Shown here piece by piece: positions 1 to 41,028 of a stretch of DNA of 41,028 nucleotides. The first letter of the stretch is position 1, and every line of letters begins with the position of its first letter. Where the stretch lies: the IMG/VR virus record IMGVR_UViG_3300046002_005060, positions 1 through 41,028 of that record. One strand, given 5' to 3'. The DNA is from a virus. Position numbers and translations under genes: made by a program. The notes under the pieces were generated by a model that made no database searches, had not been told where the DNA came from, and saw nothing but the letters and a program-made list of their open reading frames with translations.

Positions 1-127
1 ATCACGTCCTGCTGGAACATCCGCTCCTTGTCGCCCCGCGGGGCCTCCATGATGTTCTCCCGGTTCTCGATCCACGTCTTGGCGGCTCGTCTGACCGCAG
101 ACTTGTCCTTGTAGCTGGTCGTTTTTT
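1..127. repeat. Terminal overlap, left copy (identical to 40902-41028)
   Basis: Bases 1-127 match 40902-41028 exactly, and an ORF crosses the junction without a frame change. A 127-base overlap is what a k=127 assembler leaves on a circular contig, so this is best read as an assembly overlap rather than a biological terminal repeat. Confidence 0.95.
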
Positions 128-3100
128 CCTGCCCTTCTCTGGCTCCGGTGCGGAATATCTCCTCGGTCCGGGTCGCAAAATCCAACATCTGTTGAGGGTC
201 ATTGATGAACTGATCAAATTCCTCTGGGGACAGGTTGAGATTGGTGACGTCCGTGCCGTGATCCCAGTAGACCGGCTCCCCCTTCTTCATCTTGCGGACG
301 GACTGGTCGTTGGTGTATTCCGCCACCATGGCGTCACGCAACTTAACAAACTGCTCGGCCTCAAGGTCCGGTGCATGGATGAAGGACCATCCCAAGATCC
401 GGTTCCACGTCCGACTGAACCACAGGTCTGCGGTCAGGGTGGTGTAGTCCCCATGCAGGTTGTTGATGAAGCTGCCAATCTTGGGCCCGAAGACCATCCA
501 GCCAGTCACCTTTTGCGCGGAGGCTCCTTCGACCTCTAGTGGCTTTCCCTCAAACCACAGACTCTTGGTCTTCTTGAGGTAGGCGTTGATGTTGCCAACG
601 GTGTCGGACTTATTGAAGAATTTCCGCAGGTCAGCGTAGGCGTTGTTGGCCAGCAGGGTCTCCAGCTTGAGGTAGTTGTTCTCAATGGCGACCGTCTTGC
701 TGCCGAACGTCCCGGTGACTGGCTCCACCGCCTGGGTGATGGTCATCCCTCCCTTCCGCCAGACCGAGTAGACACGCACCGCCATGACACTGTTGTCGGT
801 CACGTTGTTCCCTTGGCTGGCGATGCCCAGCAGGGCGTCAAAGATCATCGTCTTGTCGGCATCGAAGTCCGGCCCATTGACGTCCAGTTCGCTAAACATC
901 TGGGCGTAGATGGCCTTGGCCGCCTTTAGGGCGCGGTCATACCACCCGATGGCAGATCGCTTGCCCGTCTCGATGGCTTTATTGACGTGCCATGCCACCT
1001 CATCCACGATGGTCTGGCTGACCAGCTTCCCGGCCTTGGCCGAGTAGTCGCCGGGGGCGATCAGCCCCTGCCGGGCACTCCAGTTCTGGAGCGACCAGAC
1101 CACATTGGTCACGCTGGCGACGAACCTCCCCTTCTTGGTGGTCACCCCTTCCACGCCGAGGTCCACCTTCCCCTCCATGAGGGGGACGGCGCTCTTGAGC
1201 TTCCCGTTGGCCGGGTACAGGGCATCTGCCACGATTCCGGCTTGCTCATCGCTCAGTCCGAATCGCTTGGCGAAGAGGTCGACGTTGAATCGATAACCCT
1301 CTGCTCCGATGGCTTTTGCATATGGGGCGACAAGATCACGAACGACTCGTTCAAATAGGGATGCCCCGGTGGGAGTGGCTTGAAGCCATGCTTCAGTCCT
1401 GCTTCCTCCATTGCCTTTCGAGAAATTGGTTTGGGTTTCATCTAGATCAGTTGATACAAGTTCTTGGTGGGCTTCCGTCAATCCGGCCGCCTTCTGAATG
1501 TCTGCGATTGATTGGGTGAAAGCAGGCAGTGCAGCCTCCTTCCCAAAGAAAAGAAACTGAACTGACTTGCCGTCCCTTGTGGCGGAAAAGTCGAGACCCT
1601 GCCCCCTCGCAGCCGCATGAATAAGTTGGATCTGCTGCTCGGACAACCTTTTTTTGGATCCCACATAATACGCAGGAGTGCCCTCCGTAGCGCTTGGGTT
1701 GGGCCGGCCTACCACCGTGGCGTCCTGAGCCCATGCAAACCCAAGCAGGGCTCCTGCCTGCTTGGCCTGCTGGTCCGTCATGTTGTCCCCGTGGATGACA
1801 AACGAAGGTTCCCTATTCCCCAGCCACGTCCCAGTAATTGGCTCCACTTGAAGACCAGTGATGCCGAACAGATCTTTGAGGAGGGCTCTGGCCTTCCCTG
1901 TCTTGAGGATCTTCCCAGCCTCCACCCCCACCCGGTCCAGCCGCGGCTTGTTCTGGGTAGGGTGCGTCACCGGGCCCGGCAAGAGTCTGGATGGAATCTT
2001 CCGCAACTCATCCTCCACTTCAGTAATCCGCTCCGCATTGAGTTCCGGCTCTTCCAGTAGCCGCTCCAATTCCTGCTGAAGATCAGCCTTCTCCTTCGGG
2101 CTGGTCGCCAATCCACTCGGCTTCCACCCATAGTCCCCGGGACGAGCACCCAGCACCAGCCATGAACCCCGCACAGAAAAGGATCCGACAGTTGAGTCGG
2201 GTTGCGTGTCCGCCGGCGGCAGCGGTTGTCCATTCTCCTCGAGGATCTTGACCAGCTTATCGTCGAAGATCACGTAATTACTGGTGCCCTCTCCGCGGGC
2301 GCGGCTGTCTCCATCGAGGTAGCGGATCCCGGCGATGCCGGCCTTGTTGAGCAGCATGGACGCCTCCTGCGGTGGAGACAGGTCCTCGTTCTCATCGAAT
2401 AGCGGCCCCTCGCTGGCGTACTTGGTGAGGCTCCGGTAGAGCTGCTCCCCCGTCATGGATTCCAGTTCCCCGTTGAGGAAATCATCGAGTTCCTCCTGCA
2501 CCTGCTCGGGCAGCGTGAGCATAAAATCCCGGGCCAGTTGCCGGATCTTATCACCCTGCTCGTCCAGACGCTTGTCCCAGTCCAGCAAGTCCTCCTGCTC
2601 CAGCATGATCTCGACCTGGTAGAGGTTGCCCTTGTTGGCGCTCTCAGTGATGCGCTCCACCAACTCGCGGACGTTCTCCAAGGTTTTGGCGTCGATGTTG
2701 TGCTTGGGCTTGAGCATTTCATACATCACCCGCTCCGCGCCTCGGTCGATGTAGTCGGTGATGATATTCATGGCTGCCCGGCTGATCGTCGACCCCGCCT
2801 TGGTGGCGGCCGGACCTTCCCTGCCCCCCTGTGAACTCCACACCTCTCCATCGAGTACGAACTCCTTGCTCAGGATGTCCCGGTAATGCTCCGCCAACCG
2901 TTTCCGCTCCGCGAAGTAGAGCCCATGGCCGAACATCTGGTTGCCCTCCCCGGTGCCGATGTAGCGTGACCGGAATTTATCCACCTTTGCCCGGGTGCCA
3001 TGCCAGGCTCCAATCGAGAACGAAGTTGGCCCGATCATCTCCACGTCCCCGGGCAACAGGAAGCGCCGGGAGGTGTCCGCCGGCTGGGCGCGGCTCCCCA

Positions 3101-6100
3101 CACTCATGCTGCTCGTATATGAGTCCGCCTGTGAGTCAGGCGGCTTGATCGTCGCCTCCGTCGCCTCCATCTCCTTGGTCAGCTGGCTGTCGTAGGTGTC
3201 CTGCTCGGTCAGGCCCACGCTTTGCCGGATCATGGTCTCGAGGTCGTCCAGTTGCCCCGCATCGCGGGCCTTCATCAGGCGCACCATTTGCCCCAGCTGG
3301 GCCCGCAGATGGTCGTAGTATTCCTTCACCTTCTCGAAGGCTCCTGGTGTGACACCGTCCGTCTCGGCCTTCCGCAGCCTCCGGCGCTGAGCACGTAGGT
3401 TCGCCAAGGTGTCCGCCCTCGCTCCCTTGGTAATCGCGTTGCCTTTACTGTTCTTGGTGCCACTGGCGTAGAGCCGCACGATACTTGACCACGCCTCCGT
3501 CACCCCGAGATCACTATCCACGAATAGGTATTTGTCCCCCGTGGCCGTCTCGATCCGCTTGATGATCGCCTTCATGGTGTCCTTGCTGATCTTGCCAGAC
3601 AGCACCGCTTCCCGGTAGTCGTTCTCGACCTGCTCCTCGAGTAGGTCCAGCGAGTCTCCTTTGGCCAACACTAGAGAGAGGCTGCGTGCCACCCCCTCCC
3701 GCACCGCGGTAACACTCGTCCCGAAAACTTCCATCTCCGCCAACGCATTGCGGCTGTCAGGGTTGAGTCTGTCCCGCTCCAGCACCTCCTTGCCGAGGCT
3801 TAGCCGGTACTGGTCCGCACGCTCCCAGATCCTGACCACGTCCATCTCATATCCGGCGGCCGTGGCTTTCTCCAGTTCCTTGAGCAGGTCCGATGTTTCA
3901 TTGGTCAACCTGATGGTGCGGCCCGGCTTCATCATTTCGATGTGCTTGTCGAGCGCATCCAGATAGGCCTCCTCTTTCAGCAGGCCCCGCTCCAGCATGA
4001 CTTGCCTCATGGTGGTCGCCGCCTCTCCGGCCGTGGCCACGGACAGGGTGCTGCCGGTGGTGGCGTCCTGTACCTCGAACGTGCCGGCGTCGGTCCGGCG
4101 AATACGGATCCCGATGGCCTCGGCCTCCGCCACTTGGGTCTGCTCCCACTCGGCCTGCTGTTGAGCCTTGGCGGCCACGCTCTCCGCGGCTGCCTTGGCC
4201 ACCGGGGTGCTGGCATCCCGGGTCGGGAAGGATTCCTGATAAGCCCCCAGCCGCTCTTCTGCCGGCATGGCGGCGATGATGATGGCCTGCTCCGGCTTGA
4301 TGCCCATCGCCTTGGCCCAGTCAGGATCCGCCAGCTTGGCGATCATCAACTCGCGGGCCTGCTGGGTTTCCACCACCCCGCGGACCCCCGCCGGTAAAAA
4401 GGTCAGGGCGGCGACAACGGCGTAAACGTCGGGACGCCAGAGCCCCCCGAATTCCCCCTCCGCTTGGAACCGCTCGAGCTCCGCGGTGAATTGAGCCTGC
4501 TGCGGCAGATCCAGCCCCAGCGGTCCGGCGAGTGCGGCCGTGAACATAGGCGCGGCGGCCTGTGCGATCTCCTCACTATATTCTGCCAGCTGAACCGTGG
4601 CCATCTTGCCGGCGATCCCGAAGGCCATCCCCGTCTTGCCGGCCACCAAGGCCGGAGTGGTGAAGGCCAGCTTGCTCGAGAGTTGGCCCAGCGTGGACTT
4701 GGGCACGAAGTTGAACAGGAACGCCGCCCGCTCCCATGCCGCCTGCACGGCCCCGGTGATCTGTGATGCCTTGTGAGCCACGTCCGGCTTCACACCGAGG
4801 CCCACCTGCCGTTGAAACTCGGCATCAGCATAGCCCCCCTGGGCGATGAAGCCGCCCACGTAAGATAGCGCCATGGGAGCCATGGCCCCGATGCTGCCAC
4901 CCACCCCGATCCCAATCTCCTGCCCCACTCCGGCGGCCTTAATGGGGGAAATATTCCCCTCGAGAATACCCACCGCCTGACCGGCCACGGCGTTGCGCAC
5001 CATCGCCTTGTCGCTGATGGCACGGAGCTCCTCCTTCTCGGCCGCCGTGGCGGGACGGGTGCCGAACATCAGCTTGCCGGCCACGTCCGGGGCGATCATG
5101 CCGGACTGCAACTCGAAGACCTGCTGCATGGTCTGGCCGGTCGGGATCAACATCTCACCGTCAAGCCGCTGCTGGAAGCGGCCAATGTCAGCCCGCTCTT
5201 TGTTATCAGCGAATCCACGCAGCATCCCCGTCAAAGAGCGGATGGCGGCCTCGGCCGTCTTCTCCGTCCCGTTGTCGGTGCTGGTAGGCGCGGCCTGCTT
5301 CTTCAGCATGGCCACCACATAGCCCCGCTCGTCCTCCGGCAGGGCGGCCAGCATGTCTATCGCCCCCTCGATGCCCTGCTGAGCTTCCTCACCAAACCGG
5401 GCCACCTTACCCTTGGACAGCATGCCGTAGATCTGGGTGGCCACCGGCCGCAGCCCTGCCACCTGCCCCTCCGCCTGTTGCCGCGCCACCAGATAGGTCT
5501 CCCTCAGTTTCCGCCCTTCCTCGGGGCCCAGCTTGGTGTCGGACCCATAAATGTCTGTCAGTCGGCTGGCCCGGGCGATGAAATCTTCCGGCTCCATTGT
5601 CAGGGCGTCCTCGATGCCGGACTGCTGCACGGCCTCCGACTGCACCCGGAAGGACCGGCGCTTGGTCTGCCACGCCTTGGCCTCCGTCATGAAGGCCTCG
5701 TCTGAGCCGACTCCCTTGCCCTCACCAAACGTGGAGACCGCCACGGCGTCACGGATCTTCTCCCGGCTCACCCCCTTGTAGGTAAACGCCAAGGGCCCGG
5801 TGCGGGCCTTAATGTACGTGTCCACCGTCACGGACTGCTTGGCTCTGGAGCGGGTCTCGTCATCCGGGGCCAGCCGGATGCTGGCCAGATCCTGACCGGC
5901 GGTGGTCTTGTCGAAGTCGAGCGTCAGGTCTTCCAGCAGTTGGTCTTGCCGGGTCCGCTGCTCGAGGTCCACCTGCCGCGGAGCCGAGACCCGGAAGGCG
6001 TCGTACTGGTTCAACTGGGCCTCGAAGAACGACTGCAACTCGGGAGGGGCGGCGGATGCTCCGCCGGCGGCACGGATGGACGCGGCTTCTTCATCCGTCA

Positions 6101-6134
6101 GGATGCCGGCGGGAGAGGGGATGTCGGTGGTCAT
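1..6134 (-). CDS. Giant polyvalent-type phage protein, N-terminal part (residues 1 to about 2045 of 3,521)
   Basis: The frame is open from ATG at 6134 to base 1, where the window is cut. Because bases 1-127 recur at 40902-41028, it continues in frame into the right-end ORF: 6134 + 4432 nt = 10,566 nt, exactly 3,522 codons. The start follows the stop of the 663-aa gene by 2 bp. In order: a charged N-terminus; an Ala/Gly-rich hydrophobic region (about residues 380-585); a helical region; a motif SMSVGSR (1009-1015); an ADP-ribosyltransferase-like domain (about 1035-1300: HGT 1045-1047, GHGLYFAE 1069-1076, RARGEGTSNYV ending near 1288); a motif SFSVRG (1318-1323); and a domain with GWYDRA near 1731 and WFSRTWNR near 1910, a pattern I recall from other large phage proteins. 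By position it should be an internal virion protein ejected with the DNA (inference). Family knowledge: polyvalent proteins of phages and conjugative elements bundle anti-host activities. Confidence 0.88.
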   Translation of the reverse strand, partial: MTTDIPSPAGILTDEEAASIRAAGGASAAPPELQSFFEAQLNQYDAFRVSAPRQVDLEQRTRQDQLLEDLTLDFDKTTAGQDLASIRLAPDDETRSRAKQSVTVDTYIKARTGPLAFTYKGVSREKIRDAVAVSTFGEGKGVGSDEAFMTEAKAWQTKRRSFRVQSEAVQQSGIEDALTMEPEDFIARASRLTDIYGSDTKLGPEEGRKLRETYLVARQQAEGQVAGLRPVATQIYGMLSKGKVARFGEEAQQGIEGAIDMLAALPEDERGYVVAMLKKQAAPTSTDNGTEKTAEAAIRSLTGMLRGFADNKERADIGRFQQRLDGEMLIPTGQTMQQVFELQSGMIAPDVAGKLMFGTRPATAAEKEELRAISDKAMVRNAVAGQAVGILEGNISPIKAAGVGQEIGIGVGGSIGAMAPMALSYVGGFIAQGGYADAEFQRQVGLGVKPDVAHKASQITGAVQAAWERAAFLFNFVPKSTLGQLSSKLAFTTPALVAGKTGMAFGIAGKMATVQLAEYSEEIAQAAAPMFTAALAGPLGLDLPQQAQFTAELERFQAEGEFGGLWRPDVYAVVAALTFLPAGVRGVVETQQARELMIAKLADPDWAKAMGIKPEQAIIIAAMPAEERLGAYQESFPTRDASTPVAKAAAESVAAKAQQQAEWEQTQVAEAEAIGIRIRRTDAGTFEVQDATTGSTLSVATAGEAATTMRQVMLERGLLKEEAYLDALDKHIEMMKPGRTIRLTNETSDLLKELEKATAAGYEMDVVRIWERADQYRLSLGKEVLERDRLNPDSRNALAEMEVFGTSVTAVREGVARSLSLVLAKGDSLDLLEEQVENDYREAVLSGKISKDTMKAIIKRIETATGDKYLFVDSDLGVTEAWSSIVRLYASGTKNSKGNAITKGARADTLANLRAQRRRLRKAETDGVTPGAFEKVKEYYDHLRAQLGQMVRLMKARDAGQLDDLETMIRQSVGLTEQDTYDSQLTKEMEATEATIKPPDSQADSYTSSMSVGSRAQPADTSRRFLLPGDVEMIGPTSFSIGAWHGTRAKVDKFRSRYIGTGEGNQMFGHGLYFAERKRLAEHYRDILSKEFVLDGEVWSSQGGREGPAATKAGSTISRAAMNIITDYIDRGAERVMYEMLKPKHNIDAKTLENVRELVERITESANKGNLYQVEIMLEQEDLLDWDKRLDEQGDKIRQLARDFMLTLPEQVQEELDDFLNGELESMTGEQLYRSLTKYASEGPLFDENEDLSPPQEASMLLNKAGIAGIRYLDGDSRARGEGTSNYVIFDDKLVKILEENGQPLPPADTQPDSTVGSFSVRGSWLVLGARPGDYGWKPSGLATSPKEKADLQQELERLLEEPELNAERITEVEDELRKIPSRLLPGPVTHPTQNKPRLDRVGVEAGKILKTGKARALLKDLFGITGLQVEPITGTWLGNREPSFVIHGDNMTDQQAKQAGALLGFAWAQDATVVGRPNPSATEGTPAYYVGSKKRLSEQQIQLIHAAARGQGLDFSATRDGKSVQFLFFGKEAALPAFTQSIADIQKAAGLTEAHQELVSTDLDETQTNFSKGNGGSRTEAWLQATPTGASLFERVVRDLVAPYAKAIGAEGYRFNVDLFAKRFGLSDEQAGIVADALYPANGKLKSAVPLMEGKVDLGVEGVTTKKGRFVASVTNVVWSLQNWSARQGLIAPGDYSAKAGKLVSQTIVDEVAWHVNKAIETGKRSAIGWYDRALKAAKAIYAQMFSELDVNGPDFDADKTMIFDALLGIASQGNNVTDNSVMAVRVYSVWRKGGMTITQAVEPVTGTFGSKTVAIENNYLKLETLLANNAYADLRKFFNKSDTVGNINAYLKKTKSLWFEGKPLEVEGASAQKVTGWMVFGPKIGSFINNLHGDYTTLTADLWFSRTWNRILGWSFIHAPDLEAEQFVKLRDAMVAEYTNDQSVRKMKKGEPVYWDHGTDVTNLNLSPEEFDQFINDPQQMLDFATRTEEIFRTGAREGQEKTTSYKDKSAVRRAAKTWIENRENIMEAPRGDKERMFQQDV

Positions 6135-6136
6135 GT

Positions 6137-8128
6137 TTATAATCTGGAAAGCCAGGCGCGGACTCCATCAGCCCATCCGCCGTTGGTGCCCTTGGGATCG
6201 TTTTCGGCACCGGGAGGGGCGTAGATGGCCCCGATCTCCTCGATGGTTTTCGCCTTGGCGTAAGGGCCCTCGGCCTTGGATAGGGTCTTGGCCTGCCGGA
6301 AGATGGAATCACGCACGGAGGGTTGCTCGGTGGGGCCGCTGCTGTCGCTGATGCCCATGGCGTTCCGCTTATTGCGGAAGGCATTGGACGTGCCTCCACC
6401 CGTCTCGAGCGCTGAGATGGCAGCCAGCACCCGCGGGTTGAGCCCATGCTCTTTGGCCGCATCGATATAGTCCTGAGCGTGCGGCTTCAGGCCCGCCGGT
6501 AGCGTGTCCTTCAGGCTGCCGGCCTCGCTGAACCCCCGCACGTTGTCGGTCTTACCGGAAAGTTTGTTACTGAGCCCAGTCCAGTCGACCGTACCAGTCG
6601 TGCCGGCCGGGGCAGTGGTTTGGCGATTCGCCGCATTCAGCAGGGCCGCCGCGTCCTCGGCGTTCATCGATTGGCCGGAGAGTTGGTAAATAGCCCCCGT
6701 GGCCTCCAAGCGCGTGGCGTTGGGGTGGTCCTTGATCCACTGCTTCATGGCGATGGCCGCATCAGCGCGGCGGGCCCGGGCCAGTTTCTGGCCCTCGACG
6801 TCAGTCACAACGGCGTCCTTCCCTATCAGACTTTTCCCCTTCATCGTCGTGGCTCCGAACCCCCCGTTGTCGTAGAGATCCTTGATGGATTCATCGACGT
6901 AGTCCTTCACGGTGCCGTTGATCCCGATCCCACCATCCCGCCACTTCTGCCCCAGCGGCCCGGTGATCTCCCCCCGTAGTTCGATGGGTAGCAGGCCGGC
7001 CTCCATGATGATGGCAGCGTAGGCATCTCTCGACGCCTTGCTGTCGCTGCCGCCGTAGCCGTCCCGGTCATAGGCGTCCACGGCCTCCAGCAGTCGGCCG
7101 AACCGTTCACTGATAACCTCCGGCCGGAGGGCGGTCTCCTTCATTGCGGCCGTGTTGAACTCCTTCAGCTTGTCCTTCAGGTAAAGTCGGTCGGCCTCGT
7201 TCACCCCTTTCGGGGCCACGCTGTTGATGACCCGGTCGATGTCCGTGTCCGTCTTGATATCCTGCTTGGCGATGCCGTCATAGACGGCCTGCTGCACGTC
7301 CGCGAACGTGTCCCGGCGCACCCCTCGGATGATATCCTTGGCACGCTCCTTCACCATGGGCGACATGCCGGTGCCGAACCCCTTCGCGTTGACGATTTTC
7401 TCTGCTTCGTCAGGGTCGTTTTGAGCCGTGCCCAGCACCCCTTCCAACGTCGTCTTCTCGTTGTCGGCCTCGTACTTCTTCTTCAGTTGCTCACCCCGCT
7501 CAGTGTATTTGATCTGCTCGAGCGCCACGTCCTCGTCCGTCAAGATGCCCAAGTCCAACCCTCCCTGAAGGTTGTCGGCGAACCCCTCGGGATCCTGCCG
7601 CTCCATGTTCAGCAGCAGCTGGTTCTTCAGCTTGGTGGTCACCTTGTCGAAGCTCTGCCGGGCGCTGTCCACCTTCACCTGCCCGGTCCGGTGGGCCTGC
7701 CAGCGGCTGAAGTCGGAATCCACCTGCTGCTTGGCCACGGGAGAGAGCGCCATCTTGCTGATGCGGCTCTGCGCCTGAGTCGCATACTCTGTGGCGATGC
7801 CCTCCCACTTGAGCTCGTCCGGCTCCTTCAGCATGGCCACCTTCATGGTGGACTCCGCCTCGGCCATGATATCCTGAGCCTCCGCCACCTTGGTCACGTT
7901 GATGGCCTGCATCTGCTTCACCGCCAGCTGTGTCAGGGAGCTGCCGGCGTCCGCGATGGCCTCGCCCATCTTCGCCTGCCCGAGGTCGGCCGCCATGGCA
8001 CCCCGCACGTCCAGGGTGACCGCGCCCACCGCGGCACGGGTGTCGATGTTGATGGGGGCCCCGGCCCCGGGATCCTTCACCATTTCGCCGGGGGACGGCA
8101 GGAGTCGGGCTCTGTTGTTGATTGCCAT
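6137..8128 (-). CDS. Internal virion protein with C-terminal glucosaminidase-like peptidoglycan hydrolase
   Basis: 663 aa. Residues 1-540 are mostly helical and charged, as in ejected core proteins. The last about 110 residues look like a glucosaminidase/lysozyme-fold domain: NPRVLAAISALETGGGTS with a likely catalytic Glu575, then FRNKRNAMGIS, then PYAKAKTIEEIGAIYAPPGA and NGGWADGVRAW near the end. This architecture fits an exolysin that opens the cell wall locally so that phage DNA can cross the periplasm. It lies 3 bp after the 245-aa internal virion gene and 2 bp before the giant gene, so the three probably form the ejectosome, comparable to T7 gp14-gp15-gp16 (inference from order). Start: ATG at 8128. 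Confidence 0.85.
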   Translation of the reverse strand: MAINNRARLLPSPGEMVKDPGAGAPINIDTRAAVGAVTLDVRGAMAADLGQAKMGEAIADAGSSLTQLAVKQMQAINVTKVAEAQDIMAEAESTMKVAMLKEPDELKWEGIATEYATQAQSRISKMALSPVAKQQVDSDFSRWQAHRTGQVKVDSARQSFDKVTTKLKNQLLLNMERQDPEGFADNLQGGLDLGILTDEDVALEQIKYTERGEQLKKKYEADNEKTTLEGVLGTAQNDPDEAEKIVNAKGFGTGMSPMVKERAKDIIRGVRRDTFADVQQAVYDGIAKQDIKTDTDIDRVINSVAPKGVNEADRLYLKDKLKEFNTAAMKETALRPEVISERFGRLLEAVDAYDRDGYGGSDSKASRDAYAAIIMEAGLLPIELRGEITGPLGQKWRDGGIGINGTVKDYVDESIKDLYDNGGFGATTMKGKSLIGKDAVVTDVEGQKLARARRADAAIAMKQWIKDHPNATRLEATGAIYQLSGQSMNAEDAAALLNAANRQTTAPAGTTGTVDWTGLSNKLSGKTDNVRGFSEAGSLKDTLPAGLKPHAQDYIDAAKEHGLNPRVLAAISALETGGGTSNAFRNKRNAMGISDSSGPTEQPSVRDSIFRQAKTLSKAEGPYAKAKTIEEIGAIYAPPGAENDPKGTNGGWADGVRAWLSRL

Positions 8129-12273: not shown

Positions 12274-12966
12274 TTAGGGAGTGGTGCCGGGGGAGAGGCG
12301 GGTCACAAACGGGATGGACGGGATCAGGGCGCGACCGATCCCGAGGGAGGTCACGGCCGTGATCACGAGGCGCAGCTTGTCACCCTTGGCGAAGGTGACC
12401 GGAGGGCCGCCGTCGACAGGGACGAATGGCACCGCCTGCGCGGCGGTGGCCGCAGTGGCCGCCGTGGCCGCAATAGCGAGGGCCGCGGAGATGTTCGCCG
12501 CGCCAGACGCCACCAAGGTGAGCACACCGAACCCAGTGGCCGCAGTCGCAGCGCTCAGGGTGAACCCGGTCGCAGTGATGGTGGCGATGGTGGTGCCGGC
12601 GGTGATGCCGGTGCCGGAGACCACCATCCCAACGAGGAGACCCGTCTGGCTGGTCGTCACGGTGACGGACGACGCGGTGGTCGTCCCCACGAACGTAGTC
12701 CCCAGCGTCACCTTTTGCAGCTGCACGCTGATGGCCAGCACGTTGGTGATGAGGCCGCCGATGCGCACCCGGGAGGCTGCGAGATCGAGGTAACCATCAG
12801 ACGTGAACGGCACAAAGTCCGCAGAGGTGGTCGCAATGTCGCCGGTCTCAATCGTGAACGTATCCGTCAGGATGTCCAGGCTGGTGTTCAGGGACGGACC
12901 AGAATACACCTGGTTGATATTGCCGGTGAAGGCAGCCGCTCGGGCCGCGTTTTGTAGAGAGGTCAT
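12274..12966 (-). CDS. Putative virion decoration or structural protein, low complexity
   Basis: 230 aa, rich in Thr, Ala, Val and Ser and predicted to be beta-rich. A Thr/Gly segment (VVSGTGITAGTTIATITATG) resembles a short beta-repeat that recurs in phage structural proteins. An Ala/Thr run (residues about 160-180) corresponds to a GCC-rich stretch of DNA. It lies between the major capsid gene and tubular A, where a head decoration or neck protein could be expected. Family not identified. Confidence 0.55.
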   Translation of the reverse strand: MTSLQNAARAAAFTGNINQVYSGPSLNTSLDILTDTFTIETGDIATTSADFVPFTSDGYLDLAASRVRIGGLITNVLAISVQLQKVTLGTTFVGTTTASSVTVTTSQTGLLVGMVVSGTGITAGTTIATITATGFTLSAATAATGFGVLTLVASGAANISAALAIAATAATAATAAQAVPFVPVDGGPPVTFAKGDKLRLVITAVTSLGIGRALIPSIPFVTRLSPGTTP

Positions 12967-34226: not shown

Positions 34227-34999
34227 CTGTCGAGCTTGTTGGTTTTCAGGTAGGCTTCCACCTCGGGCGTGGCATGGCCTATCCAAAGGGATCCGTCCGA
34301 GATCGAGCGGTAGCCCAGCCCGGCAAAGTTCCGCCCTACCCAGTCGTCCCAGCCGGCCACATGGGCCGGGTAGGCTTGCCCGTGGCGGTAGGTCACCCGG
34401 CACTCGATGGGCGGGATCCGGCGCATGGCCGCGCCAGAGTAGAGGGTGTAGCCGGCCCCCATCATGGGCGTGGAAAAGACACCACAGGGAATGTCGGTGG
34501 CGAGGGGCGGCGTCCATGGGTCGGCCAGCGAGGTGCTGACGTTGATGTATTCCGGGCTGCCCCGGATCCGGTAGACGCCCCCGATCTGGGCAATGTCCGG
34601 CCGCACATGCTGGGCCAGCTGCGCGAGGGCGTAGGGTGGCGGCAGGTTGTCGTCCTCGATGGACAGGAAGTAATCATCCGCCGAGGCCCGGCGGAAGGCG
34701 TCCCGGTAGAGCTTGGCCACGTGCCGGTGCTTGTCCGGCTCCGTGTTCTCGTAGGTGCCACTGGCCTCGGCCCGCCACATTTCCACGGTGTGCCCCTGCT
34801 TCATCAGCAGCTGGGCGGTGGGCACCAGCAGCAGGTAGAGCTCGTCGTCCGGCATCAGGTCCGAGACCGCCCACCGGAAGTGCGTCTTGTCAGGCCACTT
34901 CTCCTCGAGGAAGTAGTGCATCAGCTGATGCACGATGGGAGACTTCCCGCCCCACAACGTCAGCTGGCCAAACGTGCCAGCGTAAATCATGGCAGCCAC
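34223..34999 (-). CDS. Glycosyltransferase-like protein (GT-A fold)
   Basis: 258 aa. DDYFLSIEDDNLPPPYAL carries E-D-D (115-117), which suits the metal-binding DxD of GT-A enzymes, followed by IAQIGGVYRIRG and a Trp/Asp region VAGWDDWVGRNFAGLGYRSI. The N-terminal third has SPIVHQLMHYFL, like the start of a nucleotide-binding half. It overlaps the tail fibre by 13 bp, so the substrate could be fibre protein, phage DNA or host surface sugar; none is shown. Confidence 0.65.
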   Translation of the reverse strand: MAAMIYAGTFGQLTLWGGKSPIVHQLMHYFLEEKWPDKTHFRWAVSDLMPDDELYLLLVPTAQLLMKQGHTVEMWRAEASGTYENTEPDKHRHVAKLYRDAFRRASADDYFLSIEDDNLPPPYALAQLAQHVRPDIAQIGGVYRIRGSPEYINVSTSLADPWTPPLATDIPCGVFSTPMMGAGYTLYSGAAMRRIPPIECRVTYRHGQAYPAHVAGWDDWVGRNFAGLGYRSISDGSLWIGHATPEVEAYLKTNKLDR

Positions 35000-35931
35000 C
35001 TCCCGAGGAAATCAATGCTCAGCCCCTTCAACGAGAACCCATAGGGACCAGTGACCGAGGTCACGTTGACGTCCACCCGAGCCCCGCCCGGCATGCCGGT
35101 GGACCGCACCGCGGAGGTGAAGGCCGAGAAAGGAATCACGATGCTGTCCACGCCGGCGGAGTAGTTCCAGACCACGCTGGTATCCAGCAGCGGGGTATTG
35201 GACTGCCCGATGGTCAGCGACAGCTCGGCAGACATGCCGGCGTTCACGTTGGCGGAGATCCGCATGCCCTGCTCCGGCAGAAACCGGATGGGCAGCGTGC
35301 CCAGCCAGCGGGAGCCGGTCACCACCGTATCTTGCAATGCGAAGAGAGAATCCGGGGACCACACGTCGAAGACCTGCGGCGGGTTGTATTGGGTCCAGTC
35401 CCCGGTCGTCAGGCTCTTGCCCACCCATGCCGAGTAGTCCGAGAGCCGCACCCCCCACTGTCCGATGTAGGCTGGCTTGAGCGCCAGCTGGGCCGCCGGG
35501 TTGGCGAAGACCGCCACACTGTTTACGCTGCCTGCGCTGCCCGGCAGGATGGATCCGCCCACGCCGCCGGTGACCTGACGCCACAGCTGCTGCACCTGCA
35601 TCACCACGCGGTCGAAGCCCTGCTCGATCTGGGACGGGAGGATGGCCCCGCCGTCTTGGAAGTCGAAGGGCTGGTCGAACGGCACGCTGCGGAAGACCGT
35701 GACCCGGGCGGTCGCCGGCCATGCCGTCGCCGTCCTGATCTCGTAGCTGCCGCCGGTGCTGCTGATGGTAAACTGGGCGGCCGTCAGCGACACCGCGGCC
35801 GCGCCGGCCGGGCTCTCCACGGCCACGGCAATGTGCTCGGTGGAGACCACCGGGAAGGTGACAGGGTAGGCCGTCGAGGTGGACGCGTTGCCCACATACG
35901 AGGTGGCCGAGACTTGCAGGGAGAAAGACAC
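34987..35931 (-). CDS. Tail fibre protein with T7 gp17-like anchor
   Basis: 314 aa from GTG at 35931 (SFSLQVSATSYVGNAS), which gives a natural start; a longer frame exists upstream but has a His/Gly/Pro composition and covers a promoter. Residues about 80-120 carry the T7-type tail-fibre N-terminal block: RSVPFDQPFDFQDGGAILPS then QIEQGFDRVVMQVQQL. The remainder is beta-rich and probably forms the shaft and tip. It attaches to the nozzle and binds the host. Confidence 0.82.
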   Translation of the reverse strand: MSFSLQVSATSYVGNASTSTAYPVTFPVVSTEHIAVAVESPAGAAAVSLTAAQFTISSTGGSYEIRTATAWPATARVTVFRSVPFDQPFDFQDGGAILPSQIEQGFDRVVMQVQQLWRQVTGGVGGSILPGSAGSVNSVAVFANPAAQLALKPAYIGQWGVRLSDYSAWVGKSLTTGDWTQYNPPQVFDVWSPDSLFALQDTVVTGSRWLGTLPIRFLPEQGMRISANVNAGMSAELSLTIGQSNTPLLDTSVVWNYSAGVDSIVIPFSAFTSAVRSTGMPGGARVDVNVTSVTGPYGFSLKGLSIDFLGRWLP

Positions 35932-35973
35932 CCCATGACCCGCATGACCCGGATGCCGGACCGCAACCGGAAA

Positions 35974-36002
35974 TTGATTTGCTCCCTCAGTTGTGCTATC
36001 CT
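35974..36002 (+). promoter_or_regulatory. Sigma70-like promoter of the plus-strand moron-like gene
   Basis: -35 TTGATT (35974-35979), exactly 17-bp spacer, -10 TATCCT (35997-36002). The ATG at 36010 is 7 bp beyond, so the transcript should begin at the start codon (leaderless). It lies between the divergent tail fibre start and this gene. Confidence 0.65.
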
Positions 36003-36009
36003 CCTGCCA

Positions 36010-36444
36010 ATGCGCCACCGCCACCACCCCCAGAAGACCCTTCTTGAGTTAGTAGCCACCGCCCAACCCCCGCCACGGTTCCCCCGCGGGTACTTCAACC
36101 ACTGCATCACGCCCACCCGGGTGCTGCTCGACAGGGGTTTCACCCTCGCTCAGGCCATCGACTGGATGATCCAGCAGGGAGTCGTCAAACCAGACCACCG
36201 CAGCCAGTTCGCCAAGGCCATGCAGTCACGCATCACCCGGCTGAACCGGAAGCGGATCGACACCGCCCAGCAGTTCAGCTGGATGGAGAGCATCTTCTTT
36301 GATAGCTCCCACCTCGTCGCGGACGGTGAGATGAAGGCCGCCTGTGGCAGCCGGGCCACCAGTTGGGCCCCGGCCCGCAGCGAGTCCTCCCGCTGCCCCC
36401 GTTGCAAGGGGGCCGCCAACCGCCACGCCATCGTATCAGTCTGA
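36010..36444 (+). CDS. Moron-like plus-strand gene, unknown basic protein
   Basis: 144 aa. A His/Arg-rich start (RHRHHPQKTLLELVATAQP), then PRFPRGYFNHCITPTRVLLD, then a helical region with LAQAIDWMIQQGVVKPDHRS and FAKAMQSRITRLNRKRID, and a C-terminal CPRCKGAANRH that could bind zinc. The helical centre looks DNA-binding-like. It lies antisense to the surrounding late operon, has its own promoter and ends near an inverted repeat, as morons do. Unrecognised; a lysogen-expressed regulator or exclusion gene is possible. Confidence 0.65.
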   Translation: MRHRHHPQKTLLELVATAQPPPRFPRGYFNHCITPTRVLLDRGFTLAQAIDWMIQQGVVKPDHRSQFAKAMQSRITRLNRKRIDTAQQFSWMESIFFDSSHLVADGEMKAACGSRATSWAPARSESSRCPRCKGAANRHAIVSV

Positions 36445-36469: not shown

Positions 36470-39400
36470 CTACGGGTTGGCCGCCCGCCACTTGGCCGCA
36501 GCCTCCTCCCGGGCGGCCTGCTTCTTGGCCTTCCTTTGCTGCTTCGCCTCCTCCTCGAGCGCCTCCTGCTGCTCCTCGGTGAGGGCTTTGGTCTCGGCCG
36601 CCTTGGCCGCCTTGTCTTGTTTCGCCTCGAGCTTGCGTTGGTTGGCGGCGTCCTTCATCAGGCGCTCCTTGTCGGTGTCGTAGAGCCCATCCACCACGGC
36701 CGCGCCGTCCCGCACCACGTGGGCGAGGCTGGACGCACTAGCCAAGTTCTCGTTGAACAGGCCCATCATCATCAGCACCGCCTCGGCGTCCTTCATCACG
36801 TCCTCCACCGGCTCGTCGGCCTCGAGGAACTCTCCTGAGAGCAGGTCGCCAGCGGCCCCCACCCCTTTGCCGAAGCCGCTGAACAGGTTGCCGCTGCTGT
36901 CCCACCCGCCGGTGACCACGGCGATGGCGGACTGCAAGGCCTCCCCGATGGCCGGGATCCCCGTTAAGGGACCGGCGATGGTGGACGCTACCAGTTCGGA
37001 GAGCTTCCAGTGCTTGTCGTCCAGCACCTCGTCGTCGTCATCGTCCCGCAGATCCCGCCACGCGTTGCGCAGGACGGCGGCCATCAGGCCACCCACGCCC
37101 CACACCACCACCGCCACCCGGGCTGCCCGGGCGGGGTCGGTCTTGACGTTCCCGGCAGCCCACGCCGCCAAGGCTACCTTCTGCCGGGCCTCGGACGCGA
37201 AGGCCCATCCCAGCTTGGCCAGCGGGTTGGTCGCGGTGTTCTCGTACAGGCTACGGGTGCCGGTCCGGGTCGGCTGGGCCACCCGCTCCACGGACCGTTC
37301 CGCGGCCTTGTGAGCGTAGGCCTCCGCGGCCGGCCCGGTCAGACCCAGCTTGGCCGCCTCGCCCATCTGGTAGTCCAAAATCATGGCGTAGGTGCCGGCG
37401 GTGAATAACGCATCTGCCCCGGAGATCAGGGTGCCCAGTCGCTGCACGGTGTGCTTGACCACACTCGGGTTATCAGAGCTCAACCCGGCGAGGGCCTGTT
37501 GCACGATTGGCGGCGCCTGGAGCATCCGCCGCTGGATGTAGCTGGATCCCATGGCCGCCTTCCATCCCAGCTGGCCGCTGGTGAGCTTGCCCAGCCGCAG
37601 CAGATAGGCACCGGACGGCATCTCCGCGATGGCCGCCCCCAGCTGGGTGCTCTGGATCATCAGCGTGCCCACCCGTCCCACCAAGGCCATGCGGGCCGCC
37701 CGGCCGGTCGCGCTGCCCAGTTCGACATTCATGGCCAGTCCCGCCCCGGCGTCCCGGGTGCCGCCCTGCGCGAAGACGTCGATCCACTTCCGCAGGACCA
37801 GCTTGCCCTGAGCCCCTGCCCTCGCTTCCACCGCGTTGCCCAGTTCCCGATTCCCCAGCACGGCCTGCGCCTCGACGGCGAAGTCGTAGTAGGCCTTCCA
37901 GTGCTCCATCTGTTTGGTGTGGGCCAGCATCACCTGCAACGCGTCCTTGAAATCAGGCTCGGCGATGGCGGTGCGGCTGCGGGTCCGCAGGCTGCCCGGC
38001 GTCAGGATGCTGCCGGTGGTGGTGCCGCCGCCCACCGGGTCGATCATCTCGCCGGCCTTGGCCTGAGCGGGGGCCACCGTCACCGGGGCGTAGTTGGCAT
38101 TTTGGGGCAGGTCCACCCCGTGGCGGGCCCGGTACATGGCGTTCAGCGGGCCATATTCCGCGGCGTAGATGGCGCGGATGAAGGCCAACGTGGACAGGCC
38201 TTCCGGCGACAGCTGGGCCATCGCCTCGTCCATCCACGCTTGGTCGTAGTGCCACGTGCCGATTGGCATGTTGCTCTCGTCCAATTTCCCCAGCATGTGC
38301 CTCTTCCCATCCGCCTGCTGCCACATCAGGGCCGATTGCATGATCTCCATCTCGGACAAGGTCCGCTTGCCTACCGTCTTGTCCTTTTGGGACAGCGCAT
38401 AACGGATCTTCTCTCCGGCGAGTGTGTCGCCCCCCAGCGCGGTGAAGTGACTATGCACCAACTCACCCATAGCCTGCACGGCGTCCTCATAGGTGTAGGC
38501 CGCCGCCCTCTCTTGGTCTGCCAGGAGGATCGCTTCCGCTGAGTCCATCCCGAACGTATAACGTAAAATCTCCTCGAAGGATGAGAGGCTCATGAACATG
38601 TTGCGGAGCTTGGCTGTCCACCCAAGATCAGCGATGGCCTTGGCGTCCCGCTCGGGCGCTTCTCCGGTCTTGCCGGTGTCGACCATGAGGCTGTCCCTGA
38701 TCGCCTGCCGGGCCAACCTCTTGGCGAGGATCTTCGCCTGCCACGCTTGGTAGCCGGTCTCGTAGGTCTCCTCGACCGCCGCGTAGGCCGCCTCCATCTG
38801 GGCCGCGCTGGCACCCTCGGACACCCGGGTGTAAATGGGCCGGCCCAGTTTGTCCAACCGCCCAGAGTCGGCGTATTCCGGCAGCCACCCGCCCACCAAG
38901 TTGACCAACTCACGCTCCCGCTGCGCGAGGGCCTCTTGTTCCGGGGTCAGGTCACCAGAGGCCAGCTGCAAGTCGAGCCCCGCGAGGGCCTTCTCGGTCT
39001 GTGCGGCGGTCCACTTGTAGGCCACCCGCACCACGTCCATCAGTAGCTGCACCTCGGGCCCCAGCTTGCCGGTCATCTTCTCGCCCGGCTTGGCGTTCTG
39101 AGCAGCCGCCCGCTCCAGTAGCTTCTCGAGGCTGGCCGTGAATTCCTTCTGAAGGTGGCGCTCGAGCAGGGGGGCGATGCGGTCGATGCGCCGGGCGATC
39201 TCATCCGCCCGGGCCTCGTCCGTGGCCAGCCCGGCGAGTTTGATCTGGCCTCCCACTTGGTAGCGGATCTCCGGCGGGAGAGCGCCCACGATGGCGTCCA
39301 GCGTCCGCATGTCCCGCAGCAGGGAGGCCCGCGGACTGTAGTCCTTCTTCTGCTTGGCGTCGATCCCGGTGCGCCACTCGTCCGCGGCGTCCTTCCCGAA

Positions 39401-41028
39401 CTGGGCCTGCCGCATGGCCTGCTCCTTGTCGAGGCTCTTCTTGGTCCGCGGCTCATCGATGGCTTGAATCTTGCCATTCCACGTCAGGCGCTCGGTCGTC
39501 CAGTCGGTCTCCAGCTTACGCAGCCGGCGGGCCGCCTCCGCCGAGATCTTCCGGCGGGCCTCGGGGTCTTTCTCCAGCCGGGCATCCAGCCGGGCCTGCA
39601 CCGCGTCCAGCTTGGCCCGGGGGCCGATAGACATGGACACCGCGGAGGTCTCGGCATTGGTGCCATTGATCCGGTTCTCCTCCGTATCGCGCCAACTCTT
39701 GGAGGCCGGCTTGGTCGAGTCTTCAAATTCAAGGGTGGCGATGAACGGGGCCAGCGCTTGGTTGACCGCCGCTTTCTCCTCGTCCGTCCAGTCGGCCGCG
39801 GTGCGCGTGTATTCCGGCCGGAAGACCTGCTTGAACAGCTGCCGGGTGATGGTGCCGCCGCGGATCTTGTCCTCCAGCTCGCGCATGCGGTCGGTCATGA
39901 TCGCCTGCTTCAGGTTGGTGTTCCCCAGCGCGATGATGCTGGGAGCCAGTTCCGCGAAGTTATCCCCGGCGGTCTGCCGGTTCCGCTGCGTCTGCTCGAG
40001 TCGGGCGCGGCCCTTCTCTTGAAGCTCCACGTCGGCGTCCATCCGCCGCGGCCCCACAGACATGGAGGAGCTCCCTTGGTCTGCGTTGCGCATGGCGGTC
40101 CGCCGGCGCTCATACTCGGCCGTCGCGTCCCGTGCCGCCGCCTCGATCTCGGCGTCGGTCGCCCCCGGGTCGATCACGTATTCGTTGTCTCCTGTCAGGC
40201 GTCTGGCAAATGCGCCGAAGGTCGAGTAGGCTCCGGCGTCCTCTCTGTTCCACCGGGCCAAGGCATCGATCAAGAACGAGGCCGCATCAGGACTACCGCG
40301 GTCGACGTCATCCTCCGCGTCGGCCTCCATGCCCTGCTGGTTGCTGCTGGCCTGCTCCAGCAGGGTCTCCAGTTCGTCTTCCATGTCCAGCACCCCACGC
40401 AGTTTGCCGGACTCGTATTTGGCGTCGATGGCCTGCTGCAACTCGGCAATTCTGGCCTCGGTCGCTGAGACCGCTGGGGCACCCCTCCGCGGGCCCACGG
40501 ACATGGAGGAGGCAGAGCTATCCTCTGGTGTGGCTTGCGCGTCCGGCGCAGCACCCAGATCGAGCCCGGCAAACAATTCCTGCTCCCACTCCTTGGGTTG
40601 GATGCGGTCCACGGTGGCAGGCTTTGCTGCGGCATCAACCATCACAAATTCCCCCTCGACCGCGGTCTTGTCCTTCTTGGATTTCTTTCCGGCTGGCTTA
40701 CTCTGCCGCTCAAAGAGGGTGCCACTACGGATCCGCTCCCGGGTCGTGCGTGCCGCGTCTTCGTAGTCGGCCGGAGCAGACAGCTTGGTGGTCGACCCCA
40801 GTGTGGCAAACAGGTCTTTTTCGTTGTACCACAGGGCCGCCTGCATGTCGGCGATGGAGATGCTGATGCCCATCCTCTTCAGCATCTTCTGGGCTTGGTC
40901 CATCACGTCCTGCTGGAACATCCGCTCCTTGTCGCCCCGCGGGGCCTCCATGATGTTCTCCCGGTTCTCGATCCACGTCTTGGCGGCTCGTCTGACCGCA
41001 GACTTGTCCTTGTAGCTGGTCGTTTTTT
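36470..41028 (-). CDS. Giant polyvalent-type phage protein, C-terminal part (to residue 3,521)
   Basis: Continuation across the circle junction of the gene starting at 6134. The apparent Met at 40951 is an internal residue (2029): the codons upstream of it stay open through the end of the window and into the start. This part has three spaced copies of SMS[VI]GPR at about residues 2178, 2325 and 2468, so two roughly 145-residue modules lie between them. Long helical, charged stretches follow. A more hydrophobic section (about 3060-3400) is rich in Gly/Ala and includes a DDDDDE run. The end is a Lys/Glu/Ala-rich coiled-coil-like tail. No catalytic motif is obvious here. The C-terminus resembles the hydrophobic ends of other very large podoviral virion proteins, which suggests membrane contact during DNA ejection (inference). 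The gene ends 26 bp from the convergent plus-strand gene. Confidence 0.88.
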   Translation of the reverse strand, partial: KTTSYKDKSAVRRAAKTWIENRENIMEAPRGDKERMFQQDVMDQAQKMLKRMGISISIADMQAALWYNEKDLFATLGSTTKLSAPADYEDAARTTRERIRSGTLFERQSKPAGKKSKKDKTAVEGEFVMVDAAAKPATVDRIQPKEWEQELFAGLDLGAAPDAQATPEDSSASSMSVGPRRGAPAVSATEARIAELQQAIDAKYESGKLRGVLDMEDELETLLEQASSNQQGMEADAEDDVDRGSPDAASFLIDALARWNREDAGAYSTFGAFARRLTGDNEYVIDPGATDAEIEAAARDATAEYERRRTAMRNADQGSSSMSVGPRRMDADVELQEKGRARLEQTQRNRQTAGDNFAELAPSIIALGNTNLKQAIMTDRMRELEDKIRGGTITRQLFKQVFRPEYTRTAADWTDEEKAAVNQALAPFIATLEFEDSTKPASKSWRDTEENRINGTNAETSAVSMSIGPRAKLDAVQARLDARLEKDPEARRKISAEAARRLRKLETDWTTERLTWNGKIQAIDEPRTKKSLDKEQAMRQAQFGKDAADEWRTGIDAKQKKDYSPRASLLRDMRTLDAIVGALPPEIRYQVGGQIKLAGLATDEARADEIARRIDRIAPLLERHLQKEFTASLEKLLERAAAQNAKPGEKMTGKLGPEVQLLMDVVRVAYKWTAAQTEKALAGLDLQLASGDLTPEQEALAQRERELVNLVGGWLPEYADSGRLDKLGRPIYTRVSEGASAAQMEAAYAAVEETYETGYQAWQAKILAKRLARQAIRDSLMVDTGKTGEAPERDAKAIADLGWTAKLRNMFMSLSSFEEILRYTFGMDSAEAILLADQERAAAYTYEDAVQAMGELVHSHFTALGGDTLAGEKIRYALSQKDKTVGKRTLSEMEIMQSALMWQQADGKRHMLGKLDESNMPIGTWHYDQAWMDEAMAQLSPEGLSTLAFIRAIYAAEYGPLNAMYRARHGVDLPQNANYAPVTVAPAQAKAGEMIDPVGGGTTTGSILTPGSLRTRSRTAIAEPDFKDALQVMLAHTKQMEHWKAYYDFAVEAQAVLGNRELGNAVEARAGAQGKLVLRKWIDVFAQGGTRDAGAGLAMNVELGSATGRAARMALVGRVGTLMIQSTQLGAAIAEMPSGAYLLRLGKLTSGQLGWKAAMGSSYIQRRMLQAPPIVQQALAGLSSDNPSVVKHTVQRLGTLISGADALFTAGTYAMILDYQMGEAAKLGLTGPAAEAYAHKAAERSVERVAQPTRTGTRSLYENTATNPLAKLGWAFASEARQKVALAAWAAGNVKTDPARAARVAVVVWGVGGLMAAVLRNAWRDLRDDDDDEVLDDKHWKLSELVASTIAGPLTGIPAIGEALQSAIAVVTGGWDSSGNLFSGFGKGVGAAGDLLSGEFLEADEPVEDVMKDAEAVLMMMGLFNENLASASSLAHVVRDGAAVVDGLYDTDKERLMKDAANQRKLEAKQDKAAKAAETKALTEEQQEALEEEAKQQRKAKKQAAREEAAAKWRAANP
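40902..41028. repeat. Terminal overlap, right copy (identical to 1-127)
   Basis: Second copy of the 127-base overlap. Removing one copy gives a 40,901-bp circle and restores one uninterrupted 3,521-codon gene. Confidence 0.95.

What the first reader, a model, noticed from the sequence alone, without database searches (positions are those of the whole stretch)
1..6134. A single gene of about 3,521 codons, a quarter of the genome, split by linearisation
The frame from 6134 to 1 joins the 36470-40951 frame exactly (10,566 nt). For a 41-kb podovirus this is far larger than T7 gp16 (about 1,300 aa). It combines a hydrophobic section, an ADP-ribosyltransferase-like domain and several modules, as in polyvalent proteins that are delivered with DNA to disarm the host.
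Basis: partly seen in the sequence, partly recalled or inferred. Interest (0 to 1): 0.85.

Follow-up and report, generated by a model that had tools for sequence, protein, structure and literature searches.

The report
Giant phage ejection protein, swappable modules
A quarter of this small phage's genome is one 3,521-residue protein, probably injected into the host, built like a bead string: two fixed ends, interchangeable enzyme modules between them, and the same short 'joint' sequence at the module borders; related phages swap whole modules at those joints.

Summary
The record is a circular 40,901-bp phage with a 127-bp end overlap. One uninterrupted frame of 10,566 nt (3,521 aa, 25.8% of the genome) runs from 6134 across the junction to 36470. 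It sits at the T7 gp16 position, before a gp17-like fibre, in a temperate podovirus.

It is a polyvalent-type protein. Size alone is not exceptional: Limnohabitans phage DC33 (3,125 aa) and ctEw122 (2,792 aa) carry comparable giants.

The anatomy is the news. A constant N arm (membrane segment, degenerate HExxH-type domain) and a constant ~900-aa C arm (membrane segment) flank swappable modules: ADP-ribosyltransferase and others here; GNAT or RadC in relatives. Phages with nearly identical arms differ by whole modules.

A short joint (SMSVG/SFSIG/SFSVR, six copies) borders the modules. Recombination breakpoints fall on joints far more often than chance. Joints within one protein resemble each other more than those of other giants, at amino-acid but barely at codon level. 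I found no published description.

Injection is inferred from position and relatives. Whether joints are cut, bind something or only link is open; the in-cis metallopeptidase looks dead here, so cutting would need a protease in trans.

The parts
1..6134 (-). giant gene, 5' part (residues 1 to about 2044); continues across the circle junction at 40901
36470..40901 (-). giant gene, 3' part; 40902-41028 repeats 1-127
3111..6134 (-). N arm, residues 1-1008; homologous to the constant N arm of related giants from about residue 311
   Evidence: hhalign prob 99.3, E 3e-20
4371..4427 (-). hydrophobic segment, residues 570-588, N arm (compare T7 gp16 TMH I)
3624..3638 (-). EEQVE, residues 833-837, at the place of HExxH of related N arms: metallopeptidase site lost
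3495..3497 (-). E880, the third metal-ligand glutamate, invariant in the N-arm alignment
3096..3110 (-). joint 1, SMSVG, residues 1009-1013, end of the N arm (relatives: DPFSIGR, EPFSVGR)
3009..3023 (-). joint 2, SFSIG, residues 1038-1042, directly before the ART
2220..3047 (-). ART-PolyVal module, residues about 1030-1305; H1045, Y1073, D1274
2169..2183 (-). joint 3, SFSVR, residues 1318-1322; GC3 change point at codon 1300
1..2168 (-). module X, first part (residues 1323 to about 2044); 73-75% identical in the otherwise different giant L023, 27-29% in DC33 and ctEw122
40556..40901 (-). module X, end (to residue about 2160)
40493..40507 (-). joint 4, SMSVG, residues 2177-2181
40052..40066 (-). 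joint 5, SMSVG, residues 2324-2328
39623..39637 (-). joint 6, SMSIG, residues 2467-2471, directly before the C arm
39638..40492 (-). two small modules of about 140 aa each (residues 2182-2323 and 2329-2466), parted by joint 5, no family match
36641..39403 (-). C arm, residues 2545-3465, conserved in 27 viral loci and 2 genome contigs (38-48% identity)
37070..37126 (-). hydrophobic segment, residues 3304-3322, C arm (compare T7 gp16 TMH II)
6137..8128 (-). upstream neighbour, 663 aa with C-terminal glucosaminidase domain (peptidoglycan hydrolase; gp15-like position)
34987..36027 (-). downstream neighbour, T7-gp17-like tail fibre N-terminus

Best explanation
The gene encodes a gp16-position ejection protein of a temperate podovirus that has been turned into a carrier. 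The N and C arms are the delivery device: each holds a hydrophobic segment, as T7 gp16 does on either side of the part that reaches the host cytoplasm. The modules between them (here an H-Y-D ADP-ribosyltransferase, module X and two small modules) are the cargo. After adsorption the protein would leave the head unfolded, the arms would anchor in the inner membrane, and the middle would refold in the cytoplasm and modify host targets while DNA enters. The joint S-[FM]-S-[IV]-[GR] borders the modules, so that whole modules can be gained, lost or exchanged without disturbing the arms. Shown by sequence: gene, position, arms, modules, joints, swapping, within-protein likeness of joints. Inferred: packaging, ejection, membrane topology, ART activity, what the joint does.
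For: Position between a peptidoglycan-hydrolase protein and a gp17-like fibre; same order in vir555, with an annotated internal virion protein two genes before its giant, and in DC33 and ctEw122. Constant arms and swapped middle: L010/L012/L013/L015/L016/L017 keep N arms at 78-96% and C arms at 94-99% aa identity, but carry ART+ART-like+ART-like, ART+GNAT, ART-like, an unassigned module, an unassigned module plus ART-like, and ART only (L010, L012, L013, L015, L017, L016). L013 and L017 differ by one 294-codon module inserted exactly at the joint, with 99.5% nt identity over the next 5.8 kb. Pfam over cut-off in relatives: ART-PolyVal, GNAT, RadC, LPD37. Hydrophobic 19-mers lie only in the arms. 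Breakpoints lie within 10 aa of a joint in 11 of 52 held-out clusters against 2.35 expected, none of 5,000 draws as high. Module X lies between joints 3 and 4 and recurs in an otherwise different giant, with a codon-composition break near joint 3.
Against: No virion proteomics. Pfam and PHROGs do not link it to T7 gp16 by sequence; the C-arm model is poor (pLDDT 53), so homology to gp16 is unproven and the analogy rests on position and layout. Some relatives show no hydrophobic 19-mer over the threshold (L036, L038, L045, L058). The ART scores below cut-off in this protein. The breakpoint test treats related proteins as independent, and at a 40% identity threshold the excess is smaller (14 of 144 against 5.8, P 0.002).
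Confidence: 0.72

Rival explanations
1. Polyprotein reading (an extension of the best explanation): joints are recognition sites of a phage or host protease that cuts the giant into arms and free modules, before packaging or after injection.
For: Joints follow Ser/Asp/Pro-rich linkers, border modules, and share a dialect within each protein (z 6.15; z 5.7 after masking every other ART start). They are kept at amino-acid level while codons are nearly randomised (140 of 260 identical codons, 114 expected), which points to a protein that reads them. Iyer et al. (PMC5512222) propose release of domains by embedded peptidases and cite the processed P1 DdrB.
Against: The only peptidase-like site found in cis is EExxE here, and proteins with degenerate sites carry as many or more joints. 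No phage protease was recognised in the window (the phrog_458 'protease' match of 14326-15195 is weak and that protein looks like a scaffold). N4 vRNAP, with a metallopeptidase domain, is packaged uncut (PMC5512222).
Confidence: 0.35
2. Docking reading: each joint is a short strand that binds a phage partner (core, portal or chaperone) and tethers each module in the head or feeds it into the channel; the dialect tracks the partner.
For: Dialect differs between lineages and is uniform within a protein; about one joint per module; standalone head ARTs such as phiGT1 gp5 lack it.
Against: Plasmid-borne giants of Pseudomonas and Stutzerimonas, not known to have virions, show joint-like borders (SANILLEQ, VSDIRLAN, DDIRYQMAYHGT). 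No partner identified.
Confidence: 0.2
3. Seam reading: joints are only flexible linkers that mark where recombination has joined modules, copied along with them, without a reader.
For: Breakpoints sit on joints. In the L010 group a longer leader after the joint (SFSIRARDEAYDAAVKAGDEAEQQ) is 94-100% identical at DNA level and could serve as a recombination seam.
Against: Codon identity among joints of one protein is close to chance: in L043 RPSIT/RPSLT no codon is shared. The same kind of module carries different joints in different recipients.
Confidence: 0.35
4. Not a virion protein: expressed in lysogens or late in infection as an intracellular toxin or defence factor.
For: Temperate phage with integrase; ART and GNAT modules could act in the producing cell.
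Against: Sits inside the late structural block, same strand, between tail and fibre genes, also in the annotated relatives.
Confidence: 0.07
5. Assembly artefact: two genes or a broken frame joined falsely at the contig ends.
For: The gene crosses the linearisation point.
Against: Exact 127-bp overlap in frame; unbroken relatives with both arms in one frame.
Confidence: 0.01

Closest known systems
Polyvalent proteins of phages and conjugative elements (Iyer et al. 2017, PMC5512222)
   Same: Very large, several unrelated enzymatic domains (ART-PolyVal, GNAT, RadC, LPDs), late-gene context; the same H-Y-D ART clade; the paper likens them to viral polyproteins and names a Pseudomonas protein with 12 ARTs.
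   Different: The paper's text holds no 'linker' or 'conserved motif'. Constant arms with swapped modules among near-identical phages and a dialect joint at the borders are added here. The metallopeptidase site is degenerate in this protein.
T7 gp16 internal core / ejection protein
   Same: Gene position, and two membrane segments flanking a central part that in T7 reaches the host cytoplasm (PMC8954989).
   Different: 2.7 times longer, no detected sequence homology, no N-terminal transglycosylase (the hydrolase is on the neighbouring 663-aa protein).
N4 virion RNA polymerase (Schitoviridae)
   Same: ~3,500-aa injected podovirus virion protein with an N-terminal injection part and a C-terminal part around an enzyme (PMC5512222).
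   Different: No RNA polymerase match here; genome 40.9 kb instead of ~70 kb; several small modules instead of one polymerase.
Giant proteins of Limnohabitans phage DC33 and of ctEw122
   Same: Same gene slot, 3,125 and 2,792 aa (24% and 21% of the genome), ART-PolyVal over cut-off followed by a relative of module X.
   Different: Arms unrelated by BLAST, HETAH metallopeptidase motif present, no FSI joints; known as database records only.
MuF polymorphic toxins of temperate phages (Jamet et al. 2017, PMC5576092)
   Same: Virion-associated constant part plus variable effector in temperate phages.
   Different: Effector at the C-terminus with a small downstream gene; here modules are internal, multiple, between two constant arms, and no immunity gene was identified (not searched systematically).

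Membership tests
Polyvalent protein (Iyer 2017) | two or more domains of disparate activity in one polypeptide | tested here: inconclusive
   In the window protein only the ART and a degenerate HExxH-type domain are assignable; relatives with the same arms carry ART+GNAT, RadC+LPD37
Polyvalent protein (Iyer 2017) | ART of the H-Y-D (Tox-ART-HYD2) clade | tested here: met
   H1045, Y1073, D1274 invariant in the 9-sequence alignment A2; Pfam over cut-off in relatives, below it here
Polyvalent protein (Iyer 2017) | encoded among virion genes of a phage | tested here: met
Polyvalent protein (Iyer 2017) | delivered into the host with the DNA | not testable with these tools
   needs virion and infected-cell proteomics
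Zincin-like metallopeptidase (PolyVal MPTase) | HExxH motif | tested here: not met
   EEQVE at 833-837; HExxH intact in 8 related N arms
Zincin-like metallopeptidase (PolyVal MPTase) | zincin fold | tested here: inconclusive
   AF2 model of the L006 N-arm domain pLDDT 77, three strands and two helices bearing HExxH and E, but no PDB match (best E 0.28)
T7 gp16 family | sequence or profile homology to gp16 | tested here: not met
   no PHROG or Pfam match for the arms; fold of the C arm not resolved
T7 gp16-like ejection protein (by position) | last internal-virion gene before the gp17-type fibre, with two membrane segments | tested here: met
N4 virion RNA polymerase | RNA polymerase module | tested here: not met
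   no Pfam/PHROG match

The most novel reading that the evidence does not exclude
Polyvalent proteins are bead-string polyproteins with an addressable joint: a short border sequence, uniform within each giant but different between phage lineages, is read in trans by a co-evolving protein (most simply a protease) that frees or handles every module alike. Foreign modules acquire the recipient's joint, so the joint is both the exchange point and the processing tag.
Probability: 0.35. Interest if true: 0.82.

Novelty: new variant of a known kind. Interest (0 to 1): 0.62.

Why it matters
Polyvalent proteins were catalogued domain by domain, and whether and where most of them are cut is still open. 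A joint that can be read from sequence gives a predicted cut or docking site for each module, lets module borders be called in the hundreds of viral contigs with this ART (at least 592 matched), and points to a phage effector repertoire that turns over by whole-module exchange in a fixed delivery chassis. An isolated phage (DC33) has the same gene slot and offers a bench system.

Tried and rejected
Terminase profile PF03237 on the record: no match; the large terminase is found by PHROGs instead. tblastn of the C part in phage records: none. Idea that the in-cis metallopeptidase reads the joints: rejected as a general rule, because giants with lost HExxH (window, L008, L010, L042, L045) have as many or more joints. 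Idea that the joint is simply part of the ART fold: rejected, because it also precedes GNAT, unassigned modules and the C arm, and is absent from standalone head ARTs. Idea that joints are fresh DNA duplications: not supported, codon identity near chance. Idea that an ILYQ-type joint marks giants with zincin: seen in two proteins only, not pursued. Wider ART survey in Acidobacteriota genomes: 3 of 396, loci too short to read the borders. First dialect script timed out. AF2 of the C arm: low confidence, not used. Zincin fold by structure search: not confirmed in PDB; matches in BFVD are phage ART-PolyVal/LPD proteins of unknown function.
Full report
WHAT IS THERE. The first and last 127 bases of the record are identical, so the genome is a circle of 40,901 bp. 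One minus-strand frame runs from 6134 through the junction to 36470: 10,566 nt, 3,521 residues, no internal stop, 25.8% of the genome. The genome is a temperate podovirus: small and large terminase, T7-like portal, scaffold-like protein, capsid, tail tubes A and B, a glucosaminidase protein, the giant, a gp17-like fibre, then integrase, RecE-like exonuclease, Bet/RecT annealing protein and methyltransferase elsewhere. The giant lies where T7 has gene 16.

IT IS NOT ALONE. Searches with its two halves found 20 viral loci, and a C-arm alignment found 27 viral loci and 2 genome contigs, the latter from MAGs labelled Akkermansiaceae and Acidobacteriia. Among annotated phages, Limnohabitans phage DC33 and ctEw122 have giants of 3,125 and 2,792 aa in the same slot of 39-kb genomes, each with an ART-PolyVal domain over Pfam's cut-off; vir555 has 1,974 aa in the same slot. 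Giant size in this slot is therefore a known, if little described, property of such podoviruses.

CONSTANT ARMS, SWAPPED MIDDLE. All-against-all comparison shows a conserved C arm of about 900 aa and a conserved N arm of about 930 aa, with a middle of roughly 200 to 1,400 aa that differs. Six closely related contigs make it plain: with N arms 78-96% and C arms 94-99% identical, the middle holds ART+ART-like+ART-like (L010), ART+GNAT (L012), ART-like (L013), unassigned+ART-like (L017), another unassigned module (L015), or ART alone (L016). L013 and L017 are nearly identical downstream (99.5% over 5.8 kb) and differ by one 294-codon module, inserted at the joint. In more distant relatives RadC and LPD37 (over cut-off) and a kinase-like domain (below it) occupy the slot.

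THE WINDOW PROTEIN, PIECE BY PIECE. N arm, residues 1-1008, with a hydrophobic segment at 570-588. Residues 833-837 read EEQVE where eight relatives have HExxH; the third-ligand glutamate (E880) is kept. A profile of 19 relatives finds this region with probability 99.3 and E 3e-20, and aligns their DPFSIGR with its SSMSVGS. The domain modelled on relative L006 is confident (pLDDT 77) but has no PDB match, so 'zincin-like' rests on motif and secondary structure only. Then joint 1, joint 2, the ART (H1045, Y1073, D1274, the H-Y-D set named in PMC5512222), joint 3, module X (1323-2160), joint 4, two modules of about 140 aa parted by joint 5, joint 6, and the C arm with a hydrophobic segment at 3304-3322. 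Across the relatives checked, hydrophobic 19-mers over the threshold occur only in the arms, never in the middle, the same layout as T7 gp16, whose membrane parts flank the stretch that reaches the cytoplasm (PMC8954989).

MODULE X MOVES. The same block, 73-75% identical, sits in L023, whose arms show no match to the window's. Its homology begins at joint 3 and fades just before joint 4 of the window protein. In L023 the block is flanked by two copies of a 181-nt repeat (71% identical) instead: the recipient's own border. Codon composition in the window breaks at codon 1300, near joint 3 (GC3 0.62 in 1318-1590 against 0.81-0.90 in the arms; best two-point segmentation far above shuffles). The other composition break, at codon 1638, lies inside module X and matches no joint.

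THE JOINT. In 29 giants the motif [ST/R][FYM]S[IVL] and variants occur 51 times against 12.6 (maximum 25) in shuffles; the pattern was chosen after seeing some of these data, so this number alone is weak. Stronger tests followed. (a) Ends of high-identity alignments lie within 10 aa of a joint in 11 of 52 clusters in proteins not used to define the motif, 2.35 expected, none of 5,000 draws as high; at a 40% threshold 14 of 144 against 5.8, P 0.002. (b) In 80 viral loci with this ART, most ARTs inside giants have a joint-like sequence before and often after them, while standalone head ARTs do not. (c) Dialect: the five residues before the ART resemble some other place in the same protein more than places in other giants, z 6.15, P below 2e-4 in 35 non-redundant proteins, with controls at most other offsets near zero; masking all other ART starts leaves z 5.7. 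One control offset (-18) reached z 3.1, still well below the joint. Examples: NYSI four or five times (L042, L045, L050), QFMP/NFLP five times (L056), RFQPV twice (L063), GSLLAKV twice (L093). (d) Codons: among amino-acid-identical joint positions within a protein 140 of 260 codons match, 114 expected from each gene's codon usage; in the window 17 of 48 against 14.2. The likeness is kept at protein level.

WHAT THE JOINT MAY DO. Uniformity within a protein, difference between lineages and codon randomisation suggest that something reads it. A protease is the simplest reader, but the in-cis candidate is degenerate here and joints are as frequent without it, so it would have to act in trans. A docking role is possible. 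A pure seam is possible too, and in one phage group a longer conserved leader after the joint could serve recombination. Plasmid-borne giants show comparable borders, which speaks against a strictly virion-bound reader.

WHAT IS KNOWN. Polyvalent proteins, their ARTs and the idea of release by embedded peptidases are from Iyer et al. 2017. MuF toxins are the nearest variable-effector system of temperate phages. Searches of open full text found no description of joints or of module exchange in ejection proteins; papers outside that library were not searched.

VERDICT. The added finding is the chassis-and-module anatomy with a dialect joint. Function of the joint, packaging and ejection are inferred.

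Noticed in passing
L023:4111-4291 and 6853-7033: Two 181-nt direct repeats (71% identical) flank the module shared with the window's giant: an alternative, longer joint.
   Followed up: partly
L093, frame of 5,312 aa open at the contig end: A still larger giant with an ART bordered by two GSLLAKV joints.
   Followed up: no
L122 (NZ_CP115292.1, P. aeruginosa plasmid p382): A ~5,000-aa LPD23 protein with eleven xHG[ST] (ART-start-like) sites in tandem and ANIL/DIR-type borders; plasmid typed as non-mobilizable.
   Followed up: partly
L002 (PQ492659.1, Limnohabitans phage DC33): The record's taxonomy lists this 39-kb phage with podovirus-like late block and a 3,125-aa giant under Inoviridae, which looks like a filing error.
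   Followed up: no
L125 (BK063671.1, vir555): Host given as Methanomicrobiales although the genome carries the same podovirus late block with tail and internal virion proteins; the host assignment may need checking.
   Followed up: no
window 12274-12966 (-): 230-aa protein between capsid and tail tube A with a low-complexity Ala/Thr-rich middle; no family match over cut-off.
   Followed up: no
window 31464-32624 (-): Second fibre-like protein whose last ~50 residues match phrog_16355 (unknown function).
   Followed up: no
L010, L012, L016, around giant residues 1208-1250: The ART carries a variable insertion (up to about 50 aa) after the YLDxxSR stretch that differs between near-identical phages.
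   Followed up: no
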